Positions 3,220-31,272 of a stretch of DNA of 31,788 nt are shown here, in pieces. The notes below the pieces were generated by a model. The model saw only the letters and a list, made by a program, of their open reading frames with translations. It was not told where the DNA came from and made no database searches. This DNA comes from a virus: IMG/VR virus record IMGVR_UViG_3300020219_000049, positions 1 to 31,788 of that record. One strand, 5' to 3'. The first letter of the stretch is position 1, and every line of letters begins with the position of its first letter. The translations under genes were made by a program, and so were the position numbers.

Positions 3220-3687
3220 GTGGTTATTGAAATTAAACGTGGTCCATGCTCAAGCTGCCCTTATCGTAAAGACGTTCCGAGTGGCGTGTGGGAGGCAGAA
3301 GAGTACGACAAGCTGTCTGCGTATGACGGCGACATCATGTACCAACCAGCACGGTGGTTCATGTGCCACAACCAGGACAACAGTCTGTGCCGAGGGTGGC
3401 TCGATTGCCACGGTGAAGAATTGTTGGGCGTCAGGCTTGCGCTCGCAAAGGGTGAGTTGGATATAGATGAATACAAGAAGGCCATGGCGGAAGATCCACT
3501 GGTTCCTGTATTTCAGAGTGGGGCTGCCGCTGCCAAGCACGGCAAGAAGAAAGTAAAGAAGCCGACTACCGAAGCGCAGAAGCAGGTTGCTAAAATCTTA
3601 GAGAATCGCAGAAAGAACGCAGCGATTCGGGCTAAGTTGAAGATCTTAGAGACTCGCAGAAAAGAACTGGAAGGGCGTACGACATGA
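3220..3687 (+). CDS. DUF6283-like cysteine-rich phage protein
   Basis: A 155-residue protein starting with GTG directly after the previous stop. The N-terminal 65 residues match the small phage family I know as DUF6283: CSSCPYRKDVPSGVWEAEEY, an aspartate-rich YDG, then FMCH and CRGWLDCHG, which together could coordinate zinc. The C-terminal 60 residues are Lys/Arg/Ala-rich and helical (KKKVKKPTTEAQKQVAK), suited to nucleic-acid binding or a coiled coil. Function is unknown. The last 4 nt overlap an ATG at 3684 in frame with the following gene. Confidence 0.7.
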   Translation: MVIEIKRGPCSSCPYRKDVPSGVWEAEEYDKLSAYDGDIMYQPARWFMCHNQDNSLCRGWLDCHGEELLGVRLALAKGELDIDEYKKAMAEDPLVPVFQSGAAAAKHGKKKVKKPTTEAQKQVAKILENRRKNAAIRAKLKILETRRKELEGRTT

Positions 3688-3718
3688 CCATCCACCCTGA
3701 AAGCCTTGACGATATTTC

Positions 3719-3745
3719 AGCAATCGAACGAATGAACACAGAGGG
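3719..3745 (+). repeat. isolated partial copy of the CRISPR repeat
   Basis: These 27 nt match the 3' three quarters of the 36-nt repeat of the 7572-8115 array with one mismatch (A at 3740 where the repeat has T). The match starts at AGCAATCGAACG and ends at GAGGG. A Shine-Dalgarno sequence and ATG follow after 13 nt, the same spacing as after the repeat of the module at 5162-5335. In both places the interval contains GGA and TGCAAT. No scaffold precedes this copy. Confidence 0.75.
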
Positions 3746-3758
3746 AGGAAATGCAATC

Positions 3759-4094
3759 ATGGGAATGAATTTATCTGTATATGTCGGGCCATATTTTATC
3801 ATTGCCAAGGAAAGTTGTTTTCGATGGATGGATTGGGAAAACGTATTGTGCGACGGGCGAGGTGAAGCTGGAGTTGACGAATCAGATTTGATACTAATTC
3901 CTAACCGGAAGCTGGATGGCGTCGAGCGACCAATGCACATCGACGGCGAGCAAGGCACGATCCAGATTAACCCAGCAATGATAGTTAAGGAGACAGCGGC
4001 ATTCGTTCGACTAGCCGATGAAGTCATCCGGCATTGCGACGACAGGCTCATTGAAATTAGGGAAGCGTGGGGCGTCGTTCCGTGTTGGTCTTAG
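3759..4094 (+). CDS. hypothetical phage protein (MNLSVYVGPY type)
   Basis: The product from ATG 3759 has 111 residues and begins MGMNLSVYVGPYFII, a pattern I associate with small phage proteins of unknown function. GGGAGGAA at 3743-3750 lies 8 nt before this ATG, which favours it. An alternative in-frame start at 3684 overlaps the previous stop (ATGA) and would add 25 residues encoded through the partial CRISPR repeat. Cysteines are present (SCFRW, CDGRG, HCDD) but no clear zinc site. The repeat-like leader at 3719-3745 makes its regulation interesting. Confidence 0.6.
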   Translation: MGMNLSVYVGPYFIIAKESCFRWMDWENVLCDGRGEAGVDESDLILIPNRKLDGVERPMHIDGEQGTIQINPAMIVKETAAFVRLADEVIRHCDDRLIEIREAWGVVPCWS

Positions 4095-4112: not shown

Positions 4113-4319
4113 ATGAGCGAAAGCAAAGACACGACAAATGATTGTCAGTCGCGCGCGAGATCGCCCGACGAAATAGCATTGTCAATACAGGTTTTGAATC
4201 ATGAACTTGCACTCGGAAGTGCGATGCACGTTGTCGATATGCTTGTTGGCAATCCGTACTTCAAGGATCGTCGCGAAGAACTAATCAACACGATTGCTCA
4301 AGTGATTTCTCTTGCATAA
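4113..4319 (+). CDS. hypothetical protein, 68 aa
   Basis: ATG 4113 follows GAGAGGAAG at about 4100-4108, so I prefer it over a TTG at 4098 in the same frame. The product begins MSESKDTTNDCQSRARSPDE and is helical further on, with GSAMHVVDMLVGNPYF and an amphipathic C-terminus. It is the last gene of the small-gene run; a non-coding block follows. Function unknown. Confidence 0.55.
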   Translation: MSESKDTTNDCQSRARSPDEIALSIQVLNHELALGSAMHVVDMLVGNPYFKDRREELINTIAQVISLA

Positions 4320-4532
4320 AACCGTAAACAACGTAAACGGTTCTATTTCCTACTTCAACGAGACCCTAGTGGGCTACTCTCGGTAGGCTTTAATTCCCGG
4401 TCAAGCACCGGTATTTGGTTTCTAATGTTATACGCAAACAACTCTACGCCGTCAATCGCTTACGCTGTTTACGTTTTAATCAAACTGTTACTCACTATCG
4501 AATGTCAGGGAATAGGTAAAAAACGACCTTCG
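4320..4532 (+). other. non-coding block with dyads and GTAAAC/GTTTAC motifs
   Basis: No convincing gene. AACCGT (4320-4325) and ACGGTT (4337-4342) form a dyad that encloses two direct GTAAAC motifs (4324-4329, 4333-4338). AACGTAAAC at 4330-4338 is an exact inverted copy of GTTTACGTT at 4467-4475. Between them are a CCGGT/ACCGG hairpin near 4400-4415 and a weak stem-loop near 4372-4391. The block may terminate the upstream operon and carry regulator, replication or recombination sites. The sequence does not say which. Confidence 0.4.
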
Positions 4533-5161: not shown

Positions 5162-5335
5162 TCCTAGACGTTTCGCAAGATACGTCGAGAGTTGGCCACC
5201 TCCAGGCCGACAGTGAGCATCTAGGTAACAATGAGAGTATCAAGGTGCTCGCAGAAGGCCGAAAACAGGCGGGGATAAACAGGGTAAATCCTGACGGCCC
5301 CCGCAGTGAACAATCGAACGAATGATCACTGAGGG
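5162..5335 (+). ncRNA. guide-RNA-like scaffold plus one CRISPR repeat (copy A)
   Basis: Nearly identical to 7423-7607 and 30177-30361 from TCCTAGACG onward. It ends in a full 36-nt repeat at 5300-5335 that carries two variants: A at 5310 and T at 5326. The first hairpin (CTAGACGT with ACGTCGAG) has one mismatched pair here. GCGGGG in the scaffold can pair with CCCCGC at the start of the repeat. DNA directly after the repeat (from 5336) would be the guide if this is transcribed as a single RNA. That DNA is the ribosome-binding site and start of the gene at 5349. No promoter specific to this copy is evident, so readthrough from 4533 is likely. Confidence 0.65.
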
Positions 5336-5348
5336 TGGAGGTGCAATA

Positions 5349-5558
5349 ATGATCGCAATTGAAAACCAAACGATGATTCCGGAGCCTGTGGTTGCGGATG
5401 ATTGGCTGACTCAGTGGTTCCTCGAAAGGGCAACCGATCGTCTTGCAGAGATGTCTTGTGATGCATTCACTGTCGGTTCTTGTTCGGATCACGAATTGTG
5501 CGTCACCGAATTTTGTGCTGTGTGCGCAGCCAAAGAGTTGAAGTTACTTAGGGAGTGA
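5349..5558 (+). CDS. hypothetical protein directly downstream of guide module A
   Basis: A 69-residue protein. GGAGGTG at 5337-5343 and ATG 5349 define the start; the 13-nt gap from the end of the CRISPR repeat equals that at the gene at 3759. The product begins MIAIENQTMIPEPVVADDWL and has a C-terminal cysteine cluster (SCDAF, SCSDHELC, FCAVCA) that could bind zinc. I recognise no family. If module A is transcribed through, this gene has a structured guide-RNA-like leader, so its expression may be coupled to the RNA. Confidence 0.55.
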   Translation: MIAIENQTMIPEPVVADDWLTQWFLERATDRLAEMSCDAFTVGSCSDHELCVTEFCAVCAAKELKLLRE

Positions 5559-5980: not shown

Positions 5981-6008
5981 TTGACATACTCACTAAGAGT
6001 TGTAGAAT
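5981..6008 (+). promoter_or_regulatory. strong sigma70-type promoter of the Cas12-like locus
   Basis: Consensus TTGACA at 5981-5986, a 16-nt spacer, and TAGAAT at 6003-6008. A start near 6015 leads into a short RNA with a terminator at 6063-6099 and then the Cas12-like gene at 6113. This is among the best promoter matches in the window. Confidence 0.7.
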
Positions 6009-6014
6009 ACCAGC

Positions 6015-6099
6015 ACTGTGACGGCAGTATAAAAAACCAATCGCGGGCAACCGCGCTGTACTCCCTGCTCGTCACCGTCAATGATGAGCAGGGTTTTTT
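6015..6099 (+). ncRNA. short terminated RNA or attenuator leader upstream of the Cas12-like gene
   Basis: From the promoter at 5981 a transcript of about 85 nt would end at the terminator at 6063-6099. It contains a perfect CGCGG-GCAA-CCGCG hairpin at 6042-6055 with a GNRA-type loop. TGACGG at 6019-6024 can pair with CCGTCA at 6075-6080 inside the terminator loop, so alternative folds are possible. It could be an attenuator for the nuclease gene or a separate small RNA. A CACTG at 6014-6018 could pair with the repeat's CAGTG, but that is too short to prove a tracrRNA. Confidence 0.45.
6063..6099 (+). terminator. rho-independent terminator between promoter and Cas12-like gene
   Basis: Perfect 8-bp stem CCCTGCTC (6063-6070) with GAGCAGGG (6086-6093), a 15-nt loop and a run of six T (6094-6099). 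It stands between the promoter at 5981 and ATG 6113, so expression of the nuclease probably depends on readthrough. Confidence 0.75.
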
Positions 6100-6112: not shown

Positions 6113-7597
6113 ATGGCAATGCGCACTGTTTCGATTCCCATCGCTGAGTGCATTTCGAACACCAAAACCGAGCTTTACGCGGCATTGCAAAAATCACTTG
6201 ACGCCTCTCGCGTGGTCGCTAATATCGCTGCTACAGAATGCTTGCGGCAAGATAATTTGCAGATGGAAAAGTGCCCTAAAATCTACACTTACCCGGCGTG
6301 CAAAGGCTTATTCGAAGGTGTCTCATTTATGGTCTCTTCGGTTTGCCGCGCTGTGGAATCGGCGTATAAGAAAAAGCGGTGGAGAATGATCCGAGGCATG
6401 GAAGCAAGCCGTAGCTATCGGTCGCAGCCTTGGCCGATGCTCAATAATAAATCATGCTCTACATTCACAATCGATGATGAAGGAGAGTTTCTGACGTGTC
6501 GCATTAAGCTACTGGACGATTGGTTCGTAGTCCGGTTAGCCGGTGGAGTTAGCCATCGCGATCAAATTAAAGGCTTGCGAAGGGCGATTGCAAGTGATGG
6601 AGTCTGCGATTCTAAGTTGTGGATCGATCGAAAAAACAAGGCGATTATTGGCTTTTCTTGCGACGTAGCTGTTGCCGAGAACAAGCAGAAGCCTGATTGT
6701 GAAGTGCGGATATCTAGCGGAGTTGATTACCTACTTGGACTTACGCAAGATCGCGTTCAATCGCCATGGGTTGTCAACGCAGATGAGGTCATTTTATGGA
6801 AGGCTGAATCCACTAGGCGCAACCAACGCTATAGGCAGTCGCGAAAGCAAGGCGTCGATAGGCGACGACTCAAGGAAGAATCTAAAGCATTTGCGGATAA
6901 GATGGCAAGAAGGTTGGCGACAAAGATACACACATCGACCAGTCAAATTGTTGACAAGGCTATTAAGATTGGAGCGGCGAGAGTCAAGCTAGACTTAACA
7001 ATCAAAAGCTTCGCAACTGAATTTCCCTGGTATGATTTGGCTAACAAGATAAAATACAAATGCGAGTCTGCTGGAATCGAAGTCATTGACGCTACGCAAA
7101 CAGTCGCTCAACCGGACTGCGAAAAGCCGCATGTTTATTTTGCTTACGACTTGCATTCGCATCGGGTAAAAATAGGAAGAACTCAAGGCGGAAAAGATCG
7201 TCTAAAAGCATTCTGGACTATGCAGCCAGATTTGATTTTGCTTGCGGTTGACAATCGTGCGCAATCGAGGCTGGTTGCGATGGAAAAACACTATCACGCA
7301 TATTTCGACAATCATCGCGTGGTAAATCGAGACAAATCAGGTCGCGAGTTATTCGCGGCTGATCCTGTATTGCAATGGTTGCGAGCGGTTGGGTGGCTCG
7401 GAAATGCCGGGAACCTCTCGCAGATCATGCAAGTCCTAGACGTGTCGCAAGATACGTCTAGAGTTGGCCACCTCCAGGCCGACAGTGAGCATCTAGGTAA
7501 CAATGAGAGTATCAAGGTGCTCGCAGAAGGCCGAAAACAGGCGGGGATAAACAGGGTAAATCCTGACGGCCCCCGCAGTGAGCAATCGAACGAATGA
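6113..7597 (+). CDS. Cas12/TnpB-like RNA-guided protein with C-terminal T5orf172 (GIY-YIG) domain
   Basis: A 494-residue protein from ATG 6113; no clear Shine-Dalgarno. Residues 1-110 are helical and end in SYRSQPWP, like the N-terminal lobe of small Cas12/TnpB proteins. Residues 116-200 form a beta-rich wedge-like region. D205 in SGVDYLLGL sits where the RuvC-I Asp is expected. A basic bridge-helix-like segment follows (about 231-270), then STSQIVDKAIKIGAARVKLD, where D294 replaces the usual RuvC-II Glu. ESAGIEVIDATQTVAQ (318-333) matches the strand before a TnpB zinc ribbon. The ribbon and RuvC-III are absent. Instead residues 339-425 look like T5orf172: HVYFAYD, VKIGRT, DRLKAF, EKHYHAYF and SGRELFAA. 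The last 54 codons overlap the RNA scaffold, and the stop lies in the first repeat. The RuvC site is probably inactive, with GIY-YIG providing cutting or binding. The fold call is by eye. Confidence 0.7.
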   Translation: MAMRTVSIPIAECISNTKTELYAALQKSLDASRVVANIAATECLRQDNLQMEKCPKIYTYPACKGLFEGVSFMVSSVCRAVESAYKKKRWRMIRGMEASRSYRSQPWPMLNNKSCSTFTIDDEGEFLTCRIKLLDDWFVVRLAGGVSHRDQIKGLRRAIASDGVCDSKLWIDRKNKAIIGFSCDVAVAENKQKPDCEVRISSGVDYLLGLTQDRVQSPWVVNADEVILWKAESTRRNQRYRQSRKQGVDRRRLKEESKAFADKMARRLATKIHTSTSQIVDKAIKIGAARVKLDLTIKSFATEFPWYDLANKIKYKCESAGIEVIDATQTVAQPDCEKPHVYFAYDLHSHRVKIGRTQGGKDRLKAFWTMQPDLILLAVDNRAQSRLVAMEKHYHAYFDNHRVVNRDKSGRELFAADPVLQWLRAVGWLGNAGNLSQIMQVLDVSQDTSRVGHLQADSEHLGNNESIKVLAEGRKQAGINRVNPDGPRSEQSNE

Positions 7598-7607
7598 TCA
7601 CTGAGGG
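7423..7607 (+). ncRNA. guide-RNA scaffold plus first CRISPR repeat (copy B, array leader)
   Basis: Structured DNA overlapping the 3' end of the Cas12-like gene and running directly into the array. Hairpin 1 is CTAGACGT (7436-7443) with ACGTCTAG (7454-7461), 8 bp perfect. Hairpin 2 is TTGGCC (7464-7469) with GGCCGA (7477-7482). GCGGGG (7541-7546) pairs with CCCCGC (7571-7576) at the start of the repeat and encloses a CAGG/CCTG stem. CAGTGAGCA at 7483-7491 also occurs in the repeat. By analogy with omega RNA and tracrRNA-crRNA duplexes, this is probably the scaffold that the nuclease binds. Confidence 0.7.
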
Positions 7608-8115
7608 GCTAACGGAAAGCCGTTTTGTGTACAAGACTTGCTGACCCGCAGTGAGCAATCGAACGAATGAACACTGAGGGCTGCCAAACTTGTCCATTGG
7701 CCAATGTGACTACTGAACCCCGCAGTGAGCAATCGAACGAATGAACACTGAGGGGAGACCGTAGTTTAGCGACCGTCCCTCAGTGTTCATCCCGCAGTGA
7801 GCAATCGAACGAATGAACACTGAGGGGTGGTGCCAAATCTTTGGGGATGTGTTGTTGGGCGTCCCCGCAGTGAGCAATCGAACGAATGAACACTGAGGGA
7901 CCCAGGCTGCGTTTGTTTCGCGCGGCATGGATTTCCCCGCAGTGAGCAATCGAACGAATGAACACTGAGGGCGTAAGTTGCCAAAGCTTGTCCGATCTAA
8001 GCGTTGCACCCGCAGTGAGCAATCGAACGAATGAACACTGAGGGGAGCAGACCTGACACTTTCCTTTTACCCCCGCCTTCCCGCAGTGAGCAATCGAACG
8101 AATGAACACTGAGGG
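7572..8115 (+). CRISPR. CRISPR array, 8 repeats of 36 nt and 7 spacers
   Basis: Repeats start at 7572, 7645, 7719, 7791, 7864, 7936, 8009 and 8080, each 36 nt. Spacers are 37, 38, 36, 37, 36, 37 and 35 nt and differ from one another. All repeats are identical except the first, which has T instead of A at 7598. The ends CCCGCAGTG and CACTGAGGG form a 9-bp stem with one mismatch. The first repeat is continuous with scaffold B. Spacer 3 (7755-7790) ends in a 14-nt inverted copy of the repeat's 3' end. There is no cas1, cas2 or cas4 nearby. The array ends 25 nt before the gene at 8141. Confidence 0.95.
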
Positions 8116-8389: not shown

Positions 8390-8404
8390 AGTCAGAGAAC
8401 GATG

Positions 8405-8962
8405 TTACGGGTCCAAATGATACTTAATAATCCGCAGAGATTCTTCGATAGTTGCCTGAATGGCGCGGCGACTGAAGCGAGTCTTGAACGCAGAGCCATG
8501 CCTCATGATAAAAGTATGGTTAGTTTGCTCGGTAGTCTTTTTGATGGATGATCCGCACTTGATGTAGAGAGTGGTAACCAGGACTTGGAAGTCCGTTAGT
8601 CCCGATCCGGTTATGAGAGACGTCTCACCATCTAGATCGCTGGCTACTGAGCGATAGTCGATTACCTCGGTGGTGGCTTCCGGCATTGGCGACAGCCGCT
8701 TAATGATCCTCGGAATCCGTCGACACTTGCATTTGACAAACGTGGTGAGCTCGCCAGCTTCGGGATCGTAACTTTCGATGTCACTAATGATCTCAACCAA
8801 GATCTCTGAGTAAATGTCCTCTCGATCAACTCCGTTTGGAATGTTGGATCTCCCTATCGTTGCGAGAATCCATGGGCGAATGGCTTGAAGTATCGGTGTG
8901 ATTGCTTCTCTGTCACCGTTTGTATATTGTCTGACAAGGGCAGTGACGGTATGCTTGTCCAT
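8405..8962 (-). CDS. RNA polymerase sigma-70-like factor (ECF type)
   Basis: Encodes 185 residues from the ATG at 8962 (a TTG at 8986 could extend it by 8). Residues about 35-90 match sigma region 2: VDREDIYSEILVEIISDIES, YDPEAGELTTFVKCKCRRIP. This resembles the D-L-x-Q-E-x-F pattern and the F-D-P-x-x-G-x-F-x-x-W block of ECF factors. The C-terminal part (SIKKTTEQTNHTFIMRHGSA) may be a divergent region 4 HTH. A phage sigma-like factor could redirect host polymerase to phage promoters, or it could be a recombinase-linked regulator. It is divergent from the recombinase at 9003, with a 40-nt gap. Confidence 0.65.
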   Translation of the reverse strand: MDKHTVTALVRQYTNGDREAITPILQAIRPWILATIGRSNIPNGVDREDIYSEILVEIISDIESYDPEAGELTTFVKCKCRRIPRIIKRLSPMPEATTEVIDYRSVASDLDGETSLITGSGLTDFQVLVTTLYIKCGSSIKKTTEQTNHTFIMRHGSAFKTRFSRRAIQATIEESLRIIKYHLDP

Positions 8963-9002
8963 AGGGCGTGATGCTAGTTGAATCAATTCGAGGGGCTTCT
9001 CA

Positions 9003-10481
9003 ATGGCTTGGTACGTTTACGTTAGGATGAGTCATCGATCTTCGGCGTATTCTGGAATCAGTGAGAATTCACAGATCCTGGCATGCATGGAGTACATTTC
9101 GTCCTGCAATGTAGGCGAGCAGATAGGCAAGCACAAGTTCCCAAATGATGTTCCTGATGGCGTCTTTGTTGATCGTGGCAAGAGTGGCTGGTCCAGGAGC
9201 ATTGATGCTCGTGGCGCTGGCGTCGAGCTACTGAGAGTTCTGAAGCCGGGTGATCATATTGTATTCTACAATGTCGAGCGAGCTTTCCGCCACACTATCA
9301 ACTGCTTAACTTGGGTTGGCCGATGGCTTGAACAAGGGATTACTCCTCACTTTGCTACTGAGAAGATTGACTTCAGCACCGCCGGGGGCCGGTTTGTTGG
9401 AAGCGTTATAGCAGCCGCAGCACAATACTACAGCGACTTGATAAGCGAGAGAACGAAGGAGGCGCTAGCGATCCGCCGCAGTCGCCTTGGGCTCACGGTT
9501 AAGACAAAGCTGGTGAAGAATGCACCAAGGATATGCAGCATAAAACAGCACGCGCCACCAGCATCGGAACGAGAACTCGATACTGATATTCCAAAGGCGC
9601 TCATTTACAATCGAGTCTCCCATCTCGATCAGAGCATAAGTGGATTGAGCATGGATGCACAGAGAGAAGAGAACCTTAAGCTTGCAAGCAGGATTGGAAT
9701 CCCAGATGCCGCCGTGTTTGAGGATGAATCGATCTCTGCATTCTCAAAGCCATTTTCTTCGCGGCCTGGAGCTATTCGATTACTCACTGACTTGAAGCGA
9801 GGCGATCACGTCATCATCTATCGCGTTGATCGAGCGTTCAGAAATATACGAGACGCTTGCCAGATCGAGAAGCAACTGAGGGATCTAGGAGTAACGCTGC
9901 ACATTACTCGTGAGGGCATAGACACAAGTAACGAATATGGCCGGATGTTCTTTCAGATCCTGTCCATGTTTGCTGAACTTGAGTCTTCCATGAAGTCCCA
10001 GCGGCAAAAGGAGAATGCCAAAGCTCGCCGACATCGAGGAGATTTTCTTGGTAATGTGCCACGGCATCTCAAGGTGATCGGCAGCGGAAGTAATCGGGTA
10101 GTTGTTCACGACTATGACGCAATCGTCGACTGCTTCACCGTTGCGCTGTTGATTGACGCAGGGTTCCCTATCGAACAAGCTGCAAGAATTCTTGATACTG
10201 ACAAAGCTCTGTCATCGAGCTATCTCCGTAAGGGCCGGTTCTATAGAAATAACATACGCCCAGCGATTGCAACACTTCCAAAGGCCGTCTGCCAAGTTCT
10301 GATGGAGAGGGCAATTTGTCAGATCAAGTATCCGAATGAACGGACGTGGCGGTTGAACAATGTGGAAAAGTACTCGTATCCGGTTCGCGATATAGAGGAT
10401 CGTTTAGCCGCAGCCGATATCTCGCCAGAGCTTCGAGACTTGTTACCCAGCCATCTTCAGTTTGCCATCGCTCAAGCTTAA
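9003..10481 (+). CDS. serine recombinase with two tandem catalytic domains
   Basis: A 492-residue protein. Domain 1 (about 1-160): YVYVRMS with Ser10 as nucleophile and Arg8, FVDRGKSGWSRS, the GDHIVFYNVERAFRH strand-helix (R93, R96), and LISERTKEA at the catalytic helix E. Domain 2 (about 198-345): ALIYNRVSHLDQSISGLS with Ser206 and Arg204, FEDESISAFSKPF, GDHVIIYRVDRAFRN, and FAELESSMKSQRQKEN. Residues 345-492 are a helical C-terminal region. Normal resolvases or integrases have one such domain. It could be a fused heterodimer that performs integration, inversion or excision. The 3' end overlaps an antisense HTH-like ORF. Confidence 0.85.
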   Translation: MAWYVYVRMSHRSSAYSGISENSQILACMEYISSCNVGEQIGKHKFPNDVPDGVFVDRGKSGWSRSIDARGAGVELLRVLKPGDHIVFYNVERAFRHTINCLTWVGRWLEQGITPHFATEKIDFSTAGGRFVGSVIAAAAQYYSDLISERTKEALAIRRSRLGLTVKTKLVKNAPRICSIKQHAPPASERELDTDIPKALIYNRVSHLDQSISGLSMDAQREENLKLASRIGIPDAAVFEDESISAFSKPFSSRPGAIRLLTDLKRGDHVIIYRVDRAFRNIRDACQIEKQLRDLGVTLHITREGIDTSNEYGRMFFQILSMFAELESSMKSQRQKENAKARRHRGDFLGNVPRHLKVIGSGSNRVVVHDYDAIVDCFTVALLIDAGFPIEQAARILDTDKALSSSYLRKGRFYRNNIRPAIATLPKAVCQVLMERAICQIKYPNERTWRLNNVEKYSYPVRDIEDRLAAADISPELRDLLPSHLQFAIAQA

Positions 10482-24716: not shown

Positions 24717-25103
24717 GTGAGCATGGACAACCTTCAGATCCTCAATGGCTTCCGAGAGAACCCTCTTCGCGACGATACTCCATATCAGATTTTTACTCCC
24801 GTCCCATATCCGCGCAGACACTGGATTGGCTATCTGTTCGAGTCGTACAATGGAGTTGTCACGGGTATGTGGGTGGTTCCAACTCTCCCGTTAGACGGAA
24901 ATCTACCACCGTATTCAAGAGTGTACGTTTACAACATCTACAAATGGAACTTTGGCCTGATTGGTGCAACCATTCGCGTAGAGGAAGATCGAGTAAACAA
25001 CAGATGGATTGCACTTCAGCAAGAGTACACTTGCCCAACATCTTCTTCATACGTTGTTACGCCGCCACCTGTGAGCAGCGGGCTTGAGGATGGGGTTGCC
25101 TAA
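24717..25103 (+). CDS. hypothetical tail-region protein, 128 aa
   Basis: GTG 24717 starts 1 nt after the previous stop. It contains YPRRHWIGYLFESYNGVVTG, VYVYNIYKWNFGLIGATIRV and a C-terminal Pro/Ser-rich tail (VVTPPPVSSGLEDGVA). Beta-rich and aromatic; likely a virion or fibre component by position. No family recognised. It ends in an overlap with the poly-Ser gene start. Confidence 0.5.
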   Translation: MSMDNLQILNGFRENPLRDDTPYQIFTPVPYPRRHWIGYLFESYNGVVTGMWVVPTLPLDGNLPPYSRVYVYNIYKWNFGLIGATIRVEEDRVNNRWIALQQEYTCPTSSSYVVTPPPVSSGLEDGVA

Positions 25104-25603
25104 TGTCTCTTCCAGCGATCATTGAATGTTGTTGTGGAAGCTCCAGTTCCTCCAGTTCATTAAGTTCATCATCTTCCAGTAGTAGCAGTTCAAGTCCGTC
25201 GTCGTCAAGCTCGTCCTCATCGTCAAGTCCATCGTCCAGTAGCAGTTCGTCAAGCTCGTCCTCATCGTCAAGTCCATCGTCCAGTAGCAGTTCCTCAAGT
25301 CCGTCTTCAAGTTCATCTAGCAGCAGCAGTAGCGATTCAAGCAGCAGCAGCGATTCATCTTCAAGTTCAGATTCATCTAGTTCCAGTAGCAGCTCCAGCT
25401 CCAGTAGTTCAGCAAATCCATGCGGTGCAGACACTTGCGAATGGATTTGGCTAGAGGGAAGTAGTGAATGGATTGAAGAAACTTTCAACTGCGATACGGT
25501 AAACGCGTTACTAGGAGGCGGGTGCTTCTGTACAGAACCTCCCACTACGCCAGGAGATTACGACGGAGAAAGAAGACTCAATGGAGTATGTCATCCACTA
25601 TGA
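25103..25603 (+). CDS. poly-serine low-complexity protein
   Basis: A 166-residue protein. Residues 1-11 (MSLPAIIECCC) precede a roughly 95-residue stretch of Ser with occasional Pro, Asp and Leu. A C-terminal domain with four spaced Cys follows (CGADTCEW..., CDTVNALLGGGCFC). The coding DNA contains a 45-bp period repeat around 25206-25295 that varies in codon choice. The Ser tract may be a flexible linker or spacer in a tail fibre, or a glycosylation substrate; two glycosyltransferases lie downstream (26061, 27040). Serine-rich phage proteins are known but this one is not assignable. Confidence 0.65.
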   Translation: MSLPAIIECCCGSSSSSSSLSSSSSSSSSSSPSSSSSSSSSSPSSSSSSSSSSSSSSPSSSSSSSSPSSSSSSSSSSDSSSSSDSSSSSDSSSSSSSSSSSSSANPCGADTCEWIWLEGSSEWIEETFNCDTVNALLGGGCFCTEPPTTPGDYDGERRLNGVCHPL

Positions 25604-29311: not shown

Positions 29312-30178
29312 ATGCGTCAATTTCTCTCGATGCTTATTTTGGGACTTCTGGCCGGAAGTTCGCACGGTCAGCTTTTATCGCGGATGTTTGGATCTCCAAA
29401 GTATTCATCGAACTGCCCCGGTGGAGTTTGTCCAACCTCGAACAACTGGTCAAACAACGACGGATTGTCTCGGCGCGATCACCTGGAGCACGTTCACGGA
29501 ACAAGCACAAGTGGTATGACCGAATCGCAGGTCAGAGCTGAGCAAAACCGCTATCACAATAAGTATGGTGCTGGTCATCCAGTGCAGCAGCCGGCACAGT
29601 ACGCGGCGGTTCAATCGGCTCCTCGGCCATACATCCAGAATGCACAACAGCCTGTGGCATCTGGTGGCTCTGGTGGCTCCAGTGGCAATCTAGCGGTCGG
29701 GATGGTTTATCGCGGCGAAATTGTGGCGTCGATTGGAAGCCCGATAGTCGAATCTATGCAGTCCGATTCAAATCTGATGGCTGGTCCAATCCGCGAAAGA
29801 ATCGGCAGCAATCGACAATTCCGTAAGGTGCTCTTGGAAGCAGCCAGCAAAGCGGTATCCGATGGCACGCTGTCAGAGGCACGGTACAACGCACTTCGGT
29901 TGCAGAGTCTTAGTCCTCGCAAGCTAGAGGAAATCAAATCGCAGGTCGGCTCATTCGCGGCCGAGGAAGGTGTGCTGAGTTCTGCGGTCGGCATCGATTG
30001 GAGCAAGATCGACTGGGAAAAGTTGATGACCTTCATCGTCAAGTGGCTGCCTGTGATTATCAATCTGTTCGGCAATTCCGATCAGGTCGGCATGATGGCT
30101 CCGTCACCAATGCCACTGGTTCAGACTCGCGAATTTTATCAGACTCGCGAATTCTACACGGGTTTAATTGCCATTTGA
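29312..30178 (+). CDS. exported protein with signal peptide, Gly/Ser linker and hydrophobic C-terminus
   Basis: A 288-residue protein. ATG 29312 follows AAGGA at 29301-29305. The N-terminus MRQFLSMLILGLLAGSSHGQ is a Sec-type signal peptide. Residues 27-70 have CPGGVCPTSNN and RRDHLEHVHGTST; a GSGGSSGN linker near 120 follows. The C-terminal part includes LMTFIVKWLPVIINLFGN, one hydrophobic segment, and ends with a repeated QTREFY. The stop codon at 30176-30178 overlaps the first bases of guide module C. A surface, lysis or adsorption role is possible; no family recognised. Confidence 0.6.
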   Translation: MRQFLSMLILGLLAGSSHGQLLSRMFGSPKYSSNCPGGVCPTSNNWSNNDGLSRRDHLEHVHGTSTSGMTESQVRAEQNRYHNKYGAGHPVQQPAQYAAVQSAPRPYIQNAQQPVASGGSGGSSGNLAVGMVYRGEIVASIGSPIVESMQSDSNLMAGPIRERIGSNRQFRKVLLEAASKAVSDGTLSEARYNALRLQSLSPRKLEEIKSQVGSFAAEEGVLSSAVGIDWSKIDWEKLMTFIVKWLPVIINLFGNSDQVGMMAPSPMPLVQTREFYQTREFYTGLIAI

Positions 30179-30361
30179 TCATGCAAGTCCTAGACGTGTC
30201 GCAAGATACGTCTAGAGTTGGCCACCTCCAGGCCGACAGCGAGCATCTAGGTAACAATGAGAGTATCAAGGTGCTCGCAGAAGGCCGAAAACAGGCGGGG
30301 ATAAATAGGGTAAATCCTGACGGCCCCCGCAGTGAGCAATCGAACGAATGAACACTGAGGG
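30177..30361 (+). ncRNA. guide-RNA-like scaffold plus one CRISPR repeat (copy C)
   Basis: Same sequence as copy B (7423-7607) from GATCATGCAAG onward except for a few changes; the full repeat is 30326-30361 with the array-type A at base 27. The 8-bp first hairpin and the GCGGGG/CCCCGC pairing are kept. The candidate guide starts at 30362 (ACCACCGG...). The region to 30483 then holds a CTGGAG/CTCCAG hairpin (30414-30435), a short GAAG/CTTC stem and a T run near 30452, possibly an RNA 3' end, and AAGGAG before the next ATG. It stands between two exported-protein genes. Confidence 0.65.
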
Positions 30362-30483
30362 ACCACCGGAAAAGAGAAGGCCAAACTTGGAAGCTATAAG
30401 GTTTTACTGAAAATCTGGAGAAAAAAGCAACTCCAGAAGGGCTTCCCCGGTGACTTTTAATCGTAGTAATAAAAGGAGTATAT

Positions 30484-31272
30484 ATGCGTTTTCTCGCTGC
30501 GTGGCTTTTGTTGTGCGTGAGCTGCTTTGGACAAATCAAAATTTCCGAGCAGAAAACGCAGTCGTGGGTGGGCTTCGATGAGCCGGTTGTCGTCAACGGA
30601 ATCGTGCAAAGCGGGCCGAAGTCTAAGCCAGTGCTAGCCGGTACACGTTCGATAATCGTAGTCGACTACACAGGCTACGAATTCATCACGATGTATGCGG
30701 AAAAGATCCCAAGCCTCGAACGCGTAAACATCGAGCAGGCAGAAGGCGGCTACTGGTTCCCAAGCACCATTGTAAATGGAAAGTATCGAGTACTTGCCAT
30801 CGCGACAGCAACCGCAAAGGCACCTTCAATTGAATCGCTGGTTGTCGATGTCGGTGGTGTGCCAGATCCACCGAAGCCGGAGCCGATACCAGTTCCAGAT
30901 CCGCCAAAGCCTGACGTTGCAATTCGGAATGAATACGGTGTCGGATTAGCGGCATACAACGCAGCAGGCGATGCGACAACGGCGATCAAATATGCTGCAA
31001 TCTATGAGGCTTCTGGTAATTTCTTGTTCGGTATGCCATCGCTGAAATTCATCGTGTCGGACAATGCCAATGACTCGAAAGATCCAAACAAAAGCGTGTT
31101 AGCTTGGATGGACCAAGAGCAAAAAAAGATACCATCGACTGCAAAATGGGATGAATGGAAAATCGTTATGCGGACTGCGTTTCTGGAGTCTCAAAGAAAT
31201 AGACAGTTCACACGCGGCGATTGGTATTCAGCGTTCAATGAAGTCAAAGATGCATTAAGGGCGGTGAAGTAA
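30484..31272 (+). CDS. exported protein with signal peptide and proline-rich linker
   Basis: A 262-residue protein. ATG 30484 has AAAGGAG at 30472-30478 upstream. It begins MRFLAAWLLLCVSCFGQIKI, a Sec-type signal. Residues to about 125 form a beta-rich domain. A linker DPPKPEPIPVPDPPKP follows, then a helical C-terminal domain (ATTAIKYAAIYEASGNFLFG, and on to NEVKDALRAVK). The N-terminal half has a distant look of host-secreted Ig-like domains. It overlaps the protease gene by 1 nt, so it may be exported or acting on the cell envelope with it. Confidence 0.6.
   Translation: MRFLAAWLLLCVSCFGQIKISEQKTQSWVGFDEPVVVNGIVQSGPKSKPVLAGTRSIIVVDYTGYEFITMYAEKIPSLERVNIEQAEGGYWFPSTIVNGKYRVLAIATATAKAPSIESLVVDVGGVPDPPKPEPIPVPDPPKPDVAIRNEYGVGLAAYNAAGDATTAIKYAAIYEASGNFLFGMPSLKFIVSDNANDSKDPNKSVLAWMDQEQKKIPSTAKWDEWKIVMRTAFLESQRNRQFTRGDWYSAFNEVKDALRAVK

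What the first reader, a model, noticed from the sequence alone, without database searches (positions are those of the whole stretch)
7423..7607. Scaffold overlaps the 3' coding end of the nuclease gene, as in TnpB/omegaRNA, and copies differ only at synonymous sites
Seen: the last 54 codons (from about 7433) and the stop of the Cas12-like ORF lie in the scaffold and first repeat. In the ORF frame, copy A differs from B at three sites (V, S and E codons) and C differs from B at two sites (S and N codons). All five are third-position synonymous changes. Copies A and C show no start codon for this frame. Known: omega RNA derives from the 3' end of tnpB. Inference: the modules were copied from nuclease-gene ends, and the system may be an intermediate between TnpB elements and CRISPR effectors. 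Five changes is a small sample.
Basis: partly seen in the sequence, partly recalled or inferred. Interest (0 to 1): 0.82.

Follow-up and report, generated by a model that had tools for sequence, protein, structure and literature searches.

The report
Phage Cas12f-like protein with GIY-YIG domain
A bacterial virus carries a small CRISPR-type protein whose usual DNA-cutting centre is lost and replaced by a different type of DNA-cutting domain (GIY-YIG), and the end of its gene doubles as the structured part of its guide RNA, which also occurs as two stand-alone copies elsewhere in the virus.

Summary
A 172-nt scaffold plus 36-nt repeat covers the last 54 codons and stop of ORF 6113-7597, and it recurs at 5162-5335 (A) and 30177-30361 (C). 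All five in-frame differences are third-position synonymous (P about 0.001 for random change). One detail is wrong: copy C has an in-frame ATG (30181). The module folds far better than shuffles (z -8.0).

The TnpB-to-CRISPR 'intermediate' reading is not supported. The protein is a Cas12f-family effector (padloc Cas12f 4e-15; best folds AsCas12f and dCas12f). Its RuvC is dead: RuvC-I Asp became Ser201, the RuvC-II Glu is missing, and RuvC-III/TNB is absent. In their place sits a T5orf172-type GIY-YIG domain with conserved Tyr342, KIGRT, Arg363 and Glu391. The module leads into a CRISPR array (8 repeats, 7 spacers) whose spacers differ in a near-identical sister phage.

Most likely this is an RNA-guided phage effector in which GIY-YIG replaced RuvC. 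Cutting, guide biogenesis and targets are inferred. A neighbouring sigma-like gene leaves a dCas12f-sigma transcription role open. No homologous fusion was found in the collections searched, and no held open-access paper contains GIY-YIG, Cas12f and TnpB together.

The parts
6113..7597 (+). ORF, 494 aa: Cas12f-like core (1-326), GIY-YIG domain (341-424), module-encoded tail (441-494)
   Evidence: padloc Cas12f 4.1e-15 over 3-336; T5orf172 over 341-424; Foldseek AsCas12f 3e-17, dCas12f 3.6e-16
6713..6715 (+). Ser201 at the position of the catalytic RuvC-I Asp
   Evidence: two independent alignments put S201 on the Asp of GIDLG/GVDLG; RuvC-II Glu is a gap and RuvC-III is missing in the same alignments
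7133..7384 (+). T5orf172/MUG113 GIY-YIG nuclease domain replacing RuvC-III/TNB; Tyr342, KIGRT 353-357, Arg363, Glu391
   Evidence: fragment scores 21.5 bits, above Pfam's gathering score of 20, E 3.5e-4; local alignment to a Chitinophaga T5orf172 protein beats all of 2000 shuffles
7433..7597 (+). last 54 codons and stop of the ORF, lying inside the RNA module
   Evidence: no known homologue; pLDDT under 50
7423..7607 (+). module B: four-hairpin scaffold (to 7571) plus first repeat (7572-7607)
   Evidence: fold -97 kcal/mol with the first spacer, z -8.0; hairpins
7572..8115 (+). CRISPR array: 8 repeats of 36 nt, 7 spacers of 35-38 nt
   Evidence: spacer turnover against the sister phage L005
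5162..5335 (+). solo module A (scaffold + one repeat), directly upstream of the SD and ATG of ORF 5349-5558
30177..30361 (+). solo module C (scaffold + one repeat); holds an in-frame ATG at 30181; identical in sister phage L004
7755..7790 (+). spacer 3; its last 14 nt are antisense to the repeat's 3' end
   Evidence: chance about 2e-5
8405..8986 (-). sigma-70/ECF-like gene close to the array; possible partner, link not shown
   Evidence: Pfam Sigma70_r2 1.2e-4, just under its cut-off; NCBIfam sigma factors; no similarity to a dCas12f-linked sigma
5981..6093 (+). promoter-like TTGACA-16-TAGAAT and a 12-bp terminator hairpin just before the ORF: possible attenuated leader

Best explanation
This is a phage-encoded, derived type V-F-like CRISPR effector locus. 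SHOWN: the Cas12f core is kept, its RuvC centre is lost, and a GIY-YIG nuclease domain sits where RuvC-III/TNB should be. A highly structured RNA module overlaps the last 54 codons and runs into the first repeat of an array whose spacers turn over between sister phages, and two solo copies of the module exist. INFERRED: the transcript running from the nuclease gene's 3' end gives the scaffold plus guides (scaffold-repeat-spacer, a natural single guide, with the array supplying more). The Cas12f core uses them to form an R-loop, and the GIY-YIG domain cuts or nicks the target in place of RuvC, probably DNA of competing phages or mobile elements. The solo modules are extra guide-RNA genes, or collapsed copies of the scaffold-array unit copied from nuclease-gene ends. 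The tail is translated, and selection on it limits the module to synonymous change.
For: Cas12f profiles and fold; GIY-YIG domain with its motif residues kept; RuvC-I Asp to Ser, RuvC-II Glu missing, RuvC-III absent; RNA fold z -8.0; array with spacers differing in a near-identical phage; third-position pattern P 0.001. Truncated RuvC-dead Cas12f relatives in Bacteroidota carry scaffold copies directly after the effector gene, 2-4 of them in several loci, a precedent for multicopy single-guide modules. Precedents for nuclease swaps exist in class 1 (HNH or PD-(D/E)xK fusions, PMC12669027).
Against: No transcript or protein data. The GIY-YIG domain was modelled only at low confidence (pLDDT 52). 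No spacer matched phage or plasmid records. The scaffold has no 6-nt or longer anti-repeat, so how spacers 2-7 use it is unclear. No homologous fusion was found, so the architecture rests on one gene.
Confidence: 0.5

Rival explanations
1. RNA-guided transcription control: the RuvC-dead Cas12f core works as in dCas12f-sigmaE systems, recruiting the neighbouring sigma-like protein or blocking RNA polymerase at guide-matched sites. The GIY-YIG domain is a binding or accessory part.
For: Several of the nearest relatives recovered are truncated RuvC-dead Cas12f; in L014 a sigma-factor gene lies directly upstream, and copies of the guide scaffold follow the effector gene. PDB dCas12f 9n9c is among the best folds. 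A sigma-70-like gene lies 0.3 kb after the array.
Against: The sigma gene is on the opposite strand, not in an operon with the effector, and shows no similarity to the L014 sigma beyond shuffles. The GIY-YIG motif is intact. The tree does not place the protein inside the dCas12f clade (long branch).
Confidence: 0.2
2. One reading: an intermediate between TnpB/omegaRNA elements and CRISPR effectors.
For: Scaffold overlaps the 3' end of the ORF; solo copies resemble solo omegaRNAs; differences synonymous.
Against: Cas12f-type protein with a degenerate RuvC and a swapped nuclease domain, real CRISPR array, no TnpA and no transposon ends seen. These are derived traits.
Confidence: 0.1
3. The overlap is incidental: the scaffold is only RNA, the ORF reads into it because no stop intervenes, and the tail has no protein role. 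Solo modules A and C are arrays collapsed to one repeat or cis-acting 5' leaders, since repeats abut the start signals of genes.
For: Tail has no homologue, is predicted unfolded and has a first-percentile codon score for this phage's genes. Repeat ends abut start signals at 5335, 8115 and, for a partial repeat, 3745.
Against: Five of five differences synonymous (P 0.001); a stop-free frame occurs in only 6.6% of shuffles.
Confidence: 0.25

Closest known systems
Cas12f / CRISPR type V-F (AsCas12f1, PDB 7wju, 8j12)
   Same: size class, fold of residues 1-326, CRISPR array just downstream, structured RNA between gene and array
   Different: RuvC triad lost, TNB/RuvC-III replaced by GIY-YIG, scaffold overlaps the coding end, solo scaffold copies, no classical anti-repeat
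dCas12f-sigmaE RNA-guided transcription (PDB 9n9c/9n9m; Bacteroidota loci L014-L019; function recalled from memory)
   Same: RuvC dead and truncated at the same point; several scaffold copies near the effector gene
   Different: GIY-YIG domain added; CRISPR array rather than a few scaffold-guide units; sigma-like gene not operonic and not recognisably similar
TnpB / omegaRNA (IS200/IS605, IS607)
   Same: guide scaffold overlaps the 3' end of the ORF; solo RNA copies
   Different: no transposon ends or TnpA, CRISPR array instead of flank-derived guide in copy B, RuvC inactive
Phage Cas9 variant II-C2 with inactivated RuvC (PMC12669027)
   Same: phage-borne class 2 effector with dead RuvC and another nuclease domain left
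   Different: Cas9 with its original HNH, not a Cas12f with an acquired GIY-YIG
T5orf172/MUG113 GIY-YIG nucleases
   Same: domain and catalytic motif
   Different: fused to an RNA-guided module, not to a DNA-binding domain

Membership tests
Cas12f / type V-F | Cas12f-like fold and sequence | tested here: met
   padloc 4.1e-15; Foldseek 3e-17 to AsCas12f
Cas12f / type V-F | intact RuvC triad | tested here: not met
   D to S201, E missing, RuvC-III absent
Cas12f / type V-F | adjacent CRISPR array | tested here: met
   8 repeats, 7 spacers at 7572-8115
Cas12f / type V-F | tracrRNA with anti-repeat | tested here: not met
   no 6-nt complementary stretch in the scaffold, cofold adds no pairs; the only anti-repeat (14 nt) is inside spacer 3
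Cas12f / type V-F | guide-directed cleavage by an asymmetric dimer | not testable with these tools
   needs biochemistry
TnpB / omegaRNA | guide scaffold overlaps 3' end of ORF | tested here: met
   module B
TnpB / omegaRNA | transposon ends or TnpA transposase | tested here: not met
   no TnpA in the families searched; the serine recombinase 9003-10481 matches CcrB/XisF types
TnpB / omegaRNA | guide taken from the element's flank | tested here: inconclusive
   B has an array; A and C are followed by unique flank but no empty site was available
dCas12f-sigmaE systems | RuvC dead, truncated before RuvC-III | tested here: met
dCas12f-sigmaE systems | linked cognate sigmaE gene | tested here: inconclusive
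   sigma-70-like gene nearby but opposite strand and not similar
T5orf172 GIY-YIG domain | profile match over the curated cut-off and conserved motif | tested here: met
   21.5 bits against a cut-off of 20 for the domain fragment (19.4 for the whole protein); Y342, KIGRT, R363, E391
T5orf172 GIY-YIG domain | confident three-dimensional fold | tested here: inconclusive
   single-sequence model pLDDT 52

The most novel reading that the evidence does not exclude
An RNA-guided GIY-YIG nuclease: a Cas12f whose RuvC died and was functionally replaced by a homing-type nuclease domain. Its solo scaffold-repeat modules act as natural single-guide genes that could direct cutting of module-less alleles in co-infecting phages, i.e. 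RNA-guided homing.
Probability: 0.3. Interest if true: 0.9.

Novelty: new variant of a known kind. Interest (0 to 1): 0.74.

Why it matters
RuvC inactivation has happened many times in type V systems, and the 2025 classification describes the outcomes as binding-only silencing or transposition (PMC12669027); its section on class 2 systems names no case where another nuclease fold took over cutting in Cas12, and the word GIY-YIG is absent from its main text. If real, this would show that the Cas12f guide-RNA core is a portable targeting platform, give a compact (about 440 aa) effector with a different cleavage chemistry, and link CRISPR effectors with phage homing-type nucleases. The gene-end/scaffold overlap plus solo copies also offers a natural case to test how guide modules are copied.

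Tried and rejected
Close relatives of the effector: none in viral contigs, phages, plasmids or GTDB species genomes, nor with the fusion-signature DNA patterns. To steer the pattern searches I used alignments whose first row is a real window segment and whose other rows are invented variants; confirmation was against the real row only, and these alignments are no evidence in themselves. Bacteroidota genomes gave only one truncated dCas12f. Rfam: no family over its threshold. The spacers found no targets: the window array was searched in phages and plasmids, the sister array in phages only. Self-targeting of spacers in the window: no more than background. Tree: the window protein is a very long branch, placement unresolved. 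A link to the sigma factor could not be supported by similarity.

Full report
WHAT IS THERE. The window is an IMG/VR virus record of 31,788 bases. ORF 6113-7597 (494 aa) ends inside a structured module. Its last 54 codons start at 7433 and its stop (7595-7597) lies in the first CRISPR repeat (7572-7607). The same scaffold plus one repeat recurs at 5162-5335 (A) and 30177-30361 (C). Differences in the ORF frame are 7444, 7459 and 7582 (A against B) and 7486 and 7552 (C against B). All are third-position and synonymous; 7598 also varies, after the stop. Under random change P = 0.0011 for all five being synonymous. Only 6.6% of dinucleotide shuffles of the tail are stop-free, and its codon-usage score is reached by 6.5% of those. 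The tail score is low for this phage's genes, at about the first percentile. Copy A has none.

RNA. Module B with its first spacer folds at -97 kcal/mol, z -8.0 against dinucleotide shuffles. It makes four separate hairpins followed by the repeat's own hairpin. There is no anti-repeat of 6 nt or more in the scaffold and cofolding adds no pairs, so a classical tracrRNA-crRNA duplex is not apparent. The two changes in C keep pairs; two of three in A break the 5' hairpin. RNA constraint alone therefore does not explain the synonymous pattern. Donor nuclease-gene alleles or gene conversion with a translated copy do so better. This is inference from five sites.

PROTEIN. Residues 3-336 match Cas12f (4e-15) and Cas12u3 (4e-14) in PADLOC and guided TnpB in NCBIfam (3e-12). 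An AlphaFold2 model of the core (pLDDT about 65-87 over most of residues 1-330) finds AsCas12f (3e-17) and the nuclease-dead dCas12f 9n9c (3.6e-16) in the PDB. Two alignments place Ser201 on the catalytic RuvC-I Asp and a gap on the RuvC-II Glu, and RuvC-III/TNB is absent. Residues 341-424 are instead a T5orf172/MUG113 GIY-YIG domain. The fragment passes Pfam's cut-off (21.5 against 20 bits, E 3.5e-4). Tyr342, KIGRT, Arg363, Glu391 and a Glu412-containing C-terminal motif are kept, as in a Chitinophaga T5orf172 protein (local alignment above all 2000 shuffles; sequence). The domain's own model is poor (pLDDT 52), though the order of strands and helices fits. The tail has no match in any library tried and is predicted unfolded.

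RELATIVES. A pattern search confirmed by tblastn found Cas12f-like proteins. The ten Bacteroidota ones stop directly after the YKAExAGI motif and have lost the RuvC-I Asp. In L014 a sigma-factor gene lies directly upstream. Scaffold copies follow the effector stop in several of these loci. From memory these are the dCas12f-sigmaE RNA-guided transcription systems; no open paper on them was held, but the PDB entries 9n9c and 9n9m exist. The window protein lacks RuvC-III from the same point but adds GIY-YIG. It sits on a very long branch outside both groups, so kinship within Cas12f is unresolved. No fusion homologue was found.

SISTER PHAGE. IMGVR_UViG_3300020201_000285 is 99% identical where compared. 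It shares module C exactly and begins inside module B. Its array has six repeats; spacers 1 and 4 are unlike those of the window while 2, 3 and the last are shared. The array is therefore changing. No cas1/cas2 was recognised in the parts examined, so acquisition in trans or recombination between repeats is inferred. The nuclease gene itself is not on that contig.

HOW IT LIKELY WORKS. Best reading (0.5): an RNA-guided phage effector in which GIY-YIG has replaced RuvC. The scaffold is made from the 3' end of the gene's own transcript and from solo copies, with guides from the array. The main rivals are a dCas12f-like transcription role with the nearby sigma-like gene (0.2; that gene shows no similarity to the L014 sigma), an incidental coding overlap with solo modules as collapsed arrays or leaders (0.25), and the TnpB-CRISPR intermediate (0.1). 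These are not all mutually exclusive.

LITERATURE. No paper held contains GIY-YIG, Cas12f and TnpB together. The 2025 CRISPR classification does not mention GIY-YIG in its main text and, in its class 2 section, gives inactivated Cas12s as silencing or transposition systems. In phages a GIY-YIG nuclease (Odn) and a CRISPR system are known to occupy the same locus alternately in ICP1 (PMC11656645), an interesting parallel. Subscription journals and most preprints are not covered, so novelty is provisional.

Noticed in passing
window 3719-3745: Inside ORF 3684-4094 there is a 26/27 match to the 3' part of the CRISPR repeat (29/30 against the last repeat with its flank, E 1e-8). Its end abuts an SD-like GGGAGG, as repeat ends do before ORFs 5349 and 8135/8141.
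   Followed up: partly
window 4308-4487; L005 741-920: A 180-bp element with inverted ends is 100% identical but at a different place in the sister phage; the window has the empty site at 8395. It looks like a mobile MITE-like element; a sub-threshold RAGATH-18 match (22.5 bits, E 0.72) lies in it.
   Followed up: partly
window 5981-6093: Strong promoter-like site followed by a 12-bp terminator hairpin right before the effector ATG: possible attenuator or small RNA.
   Followed up: no
window 7755-7790: Spacer 3, shared with the sister phage, ends in 14 nt antisense to the repeat. It may derive from a repeat-flank junction of another array, i.e. array-against-array targeting, or act as an anti-repeat.
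   Followed up: partly
window 30462-31272; L004 6636-7043: About 100 bp downstream of module C the two sister phages abruptly become unrelated and carry different genes.
   Followed up: no
window 9003-10481: Serine recombinase with two resolvase-domain stretches, CcrB/XisF-like.
   Followed up: no
window 25103-25603: ORF with long serine runs that differ by one residue in length between sister phages.
   Followed up: no
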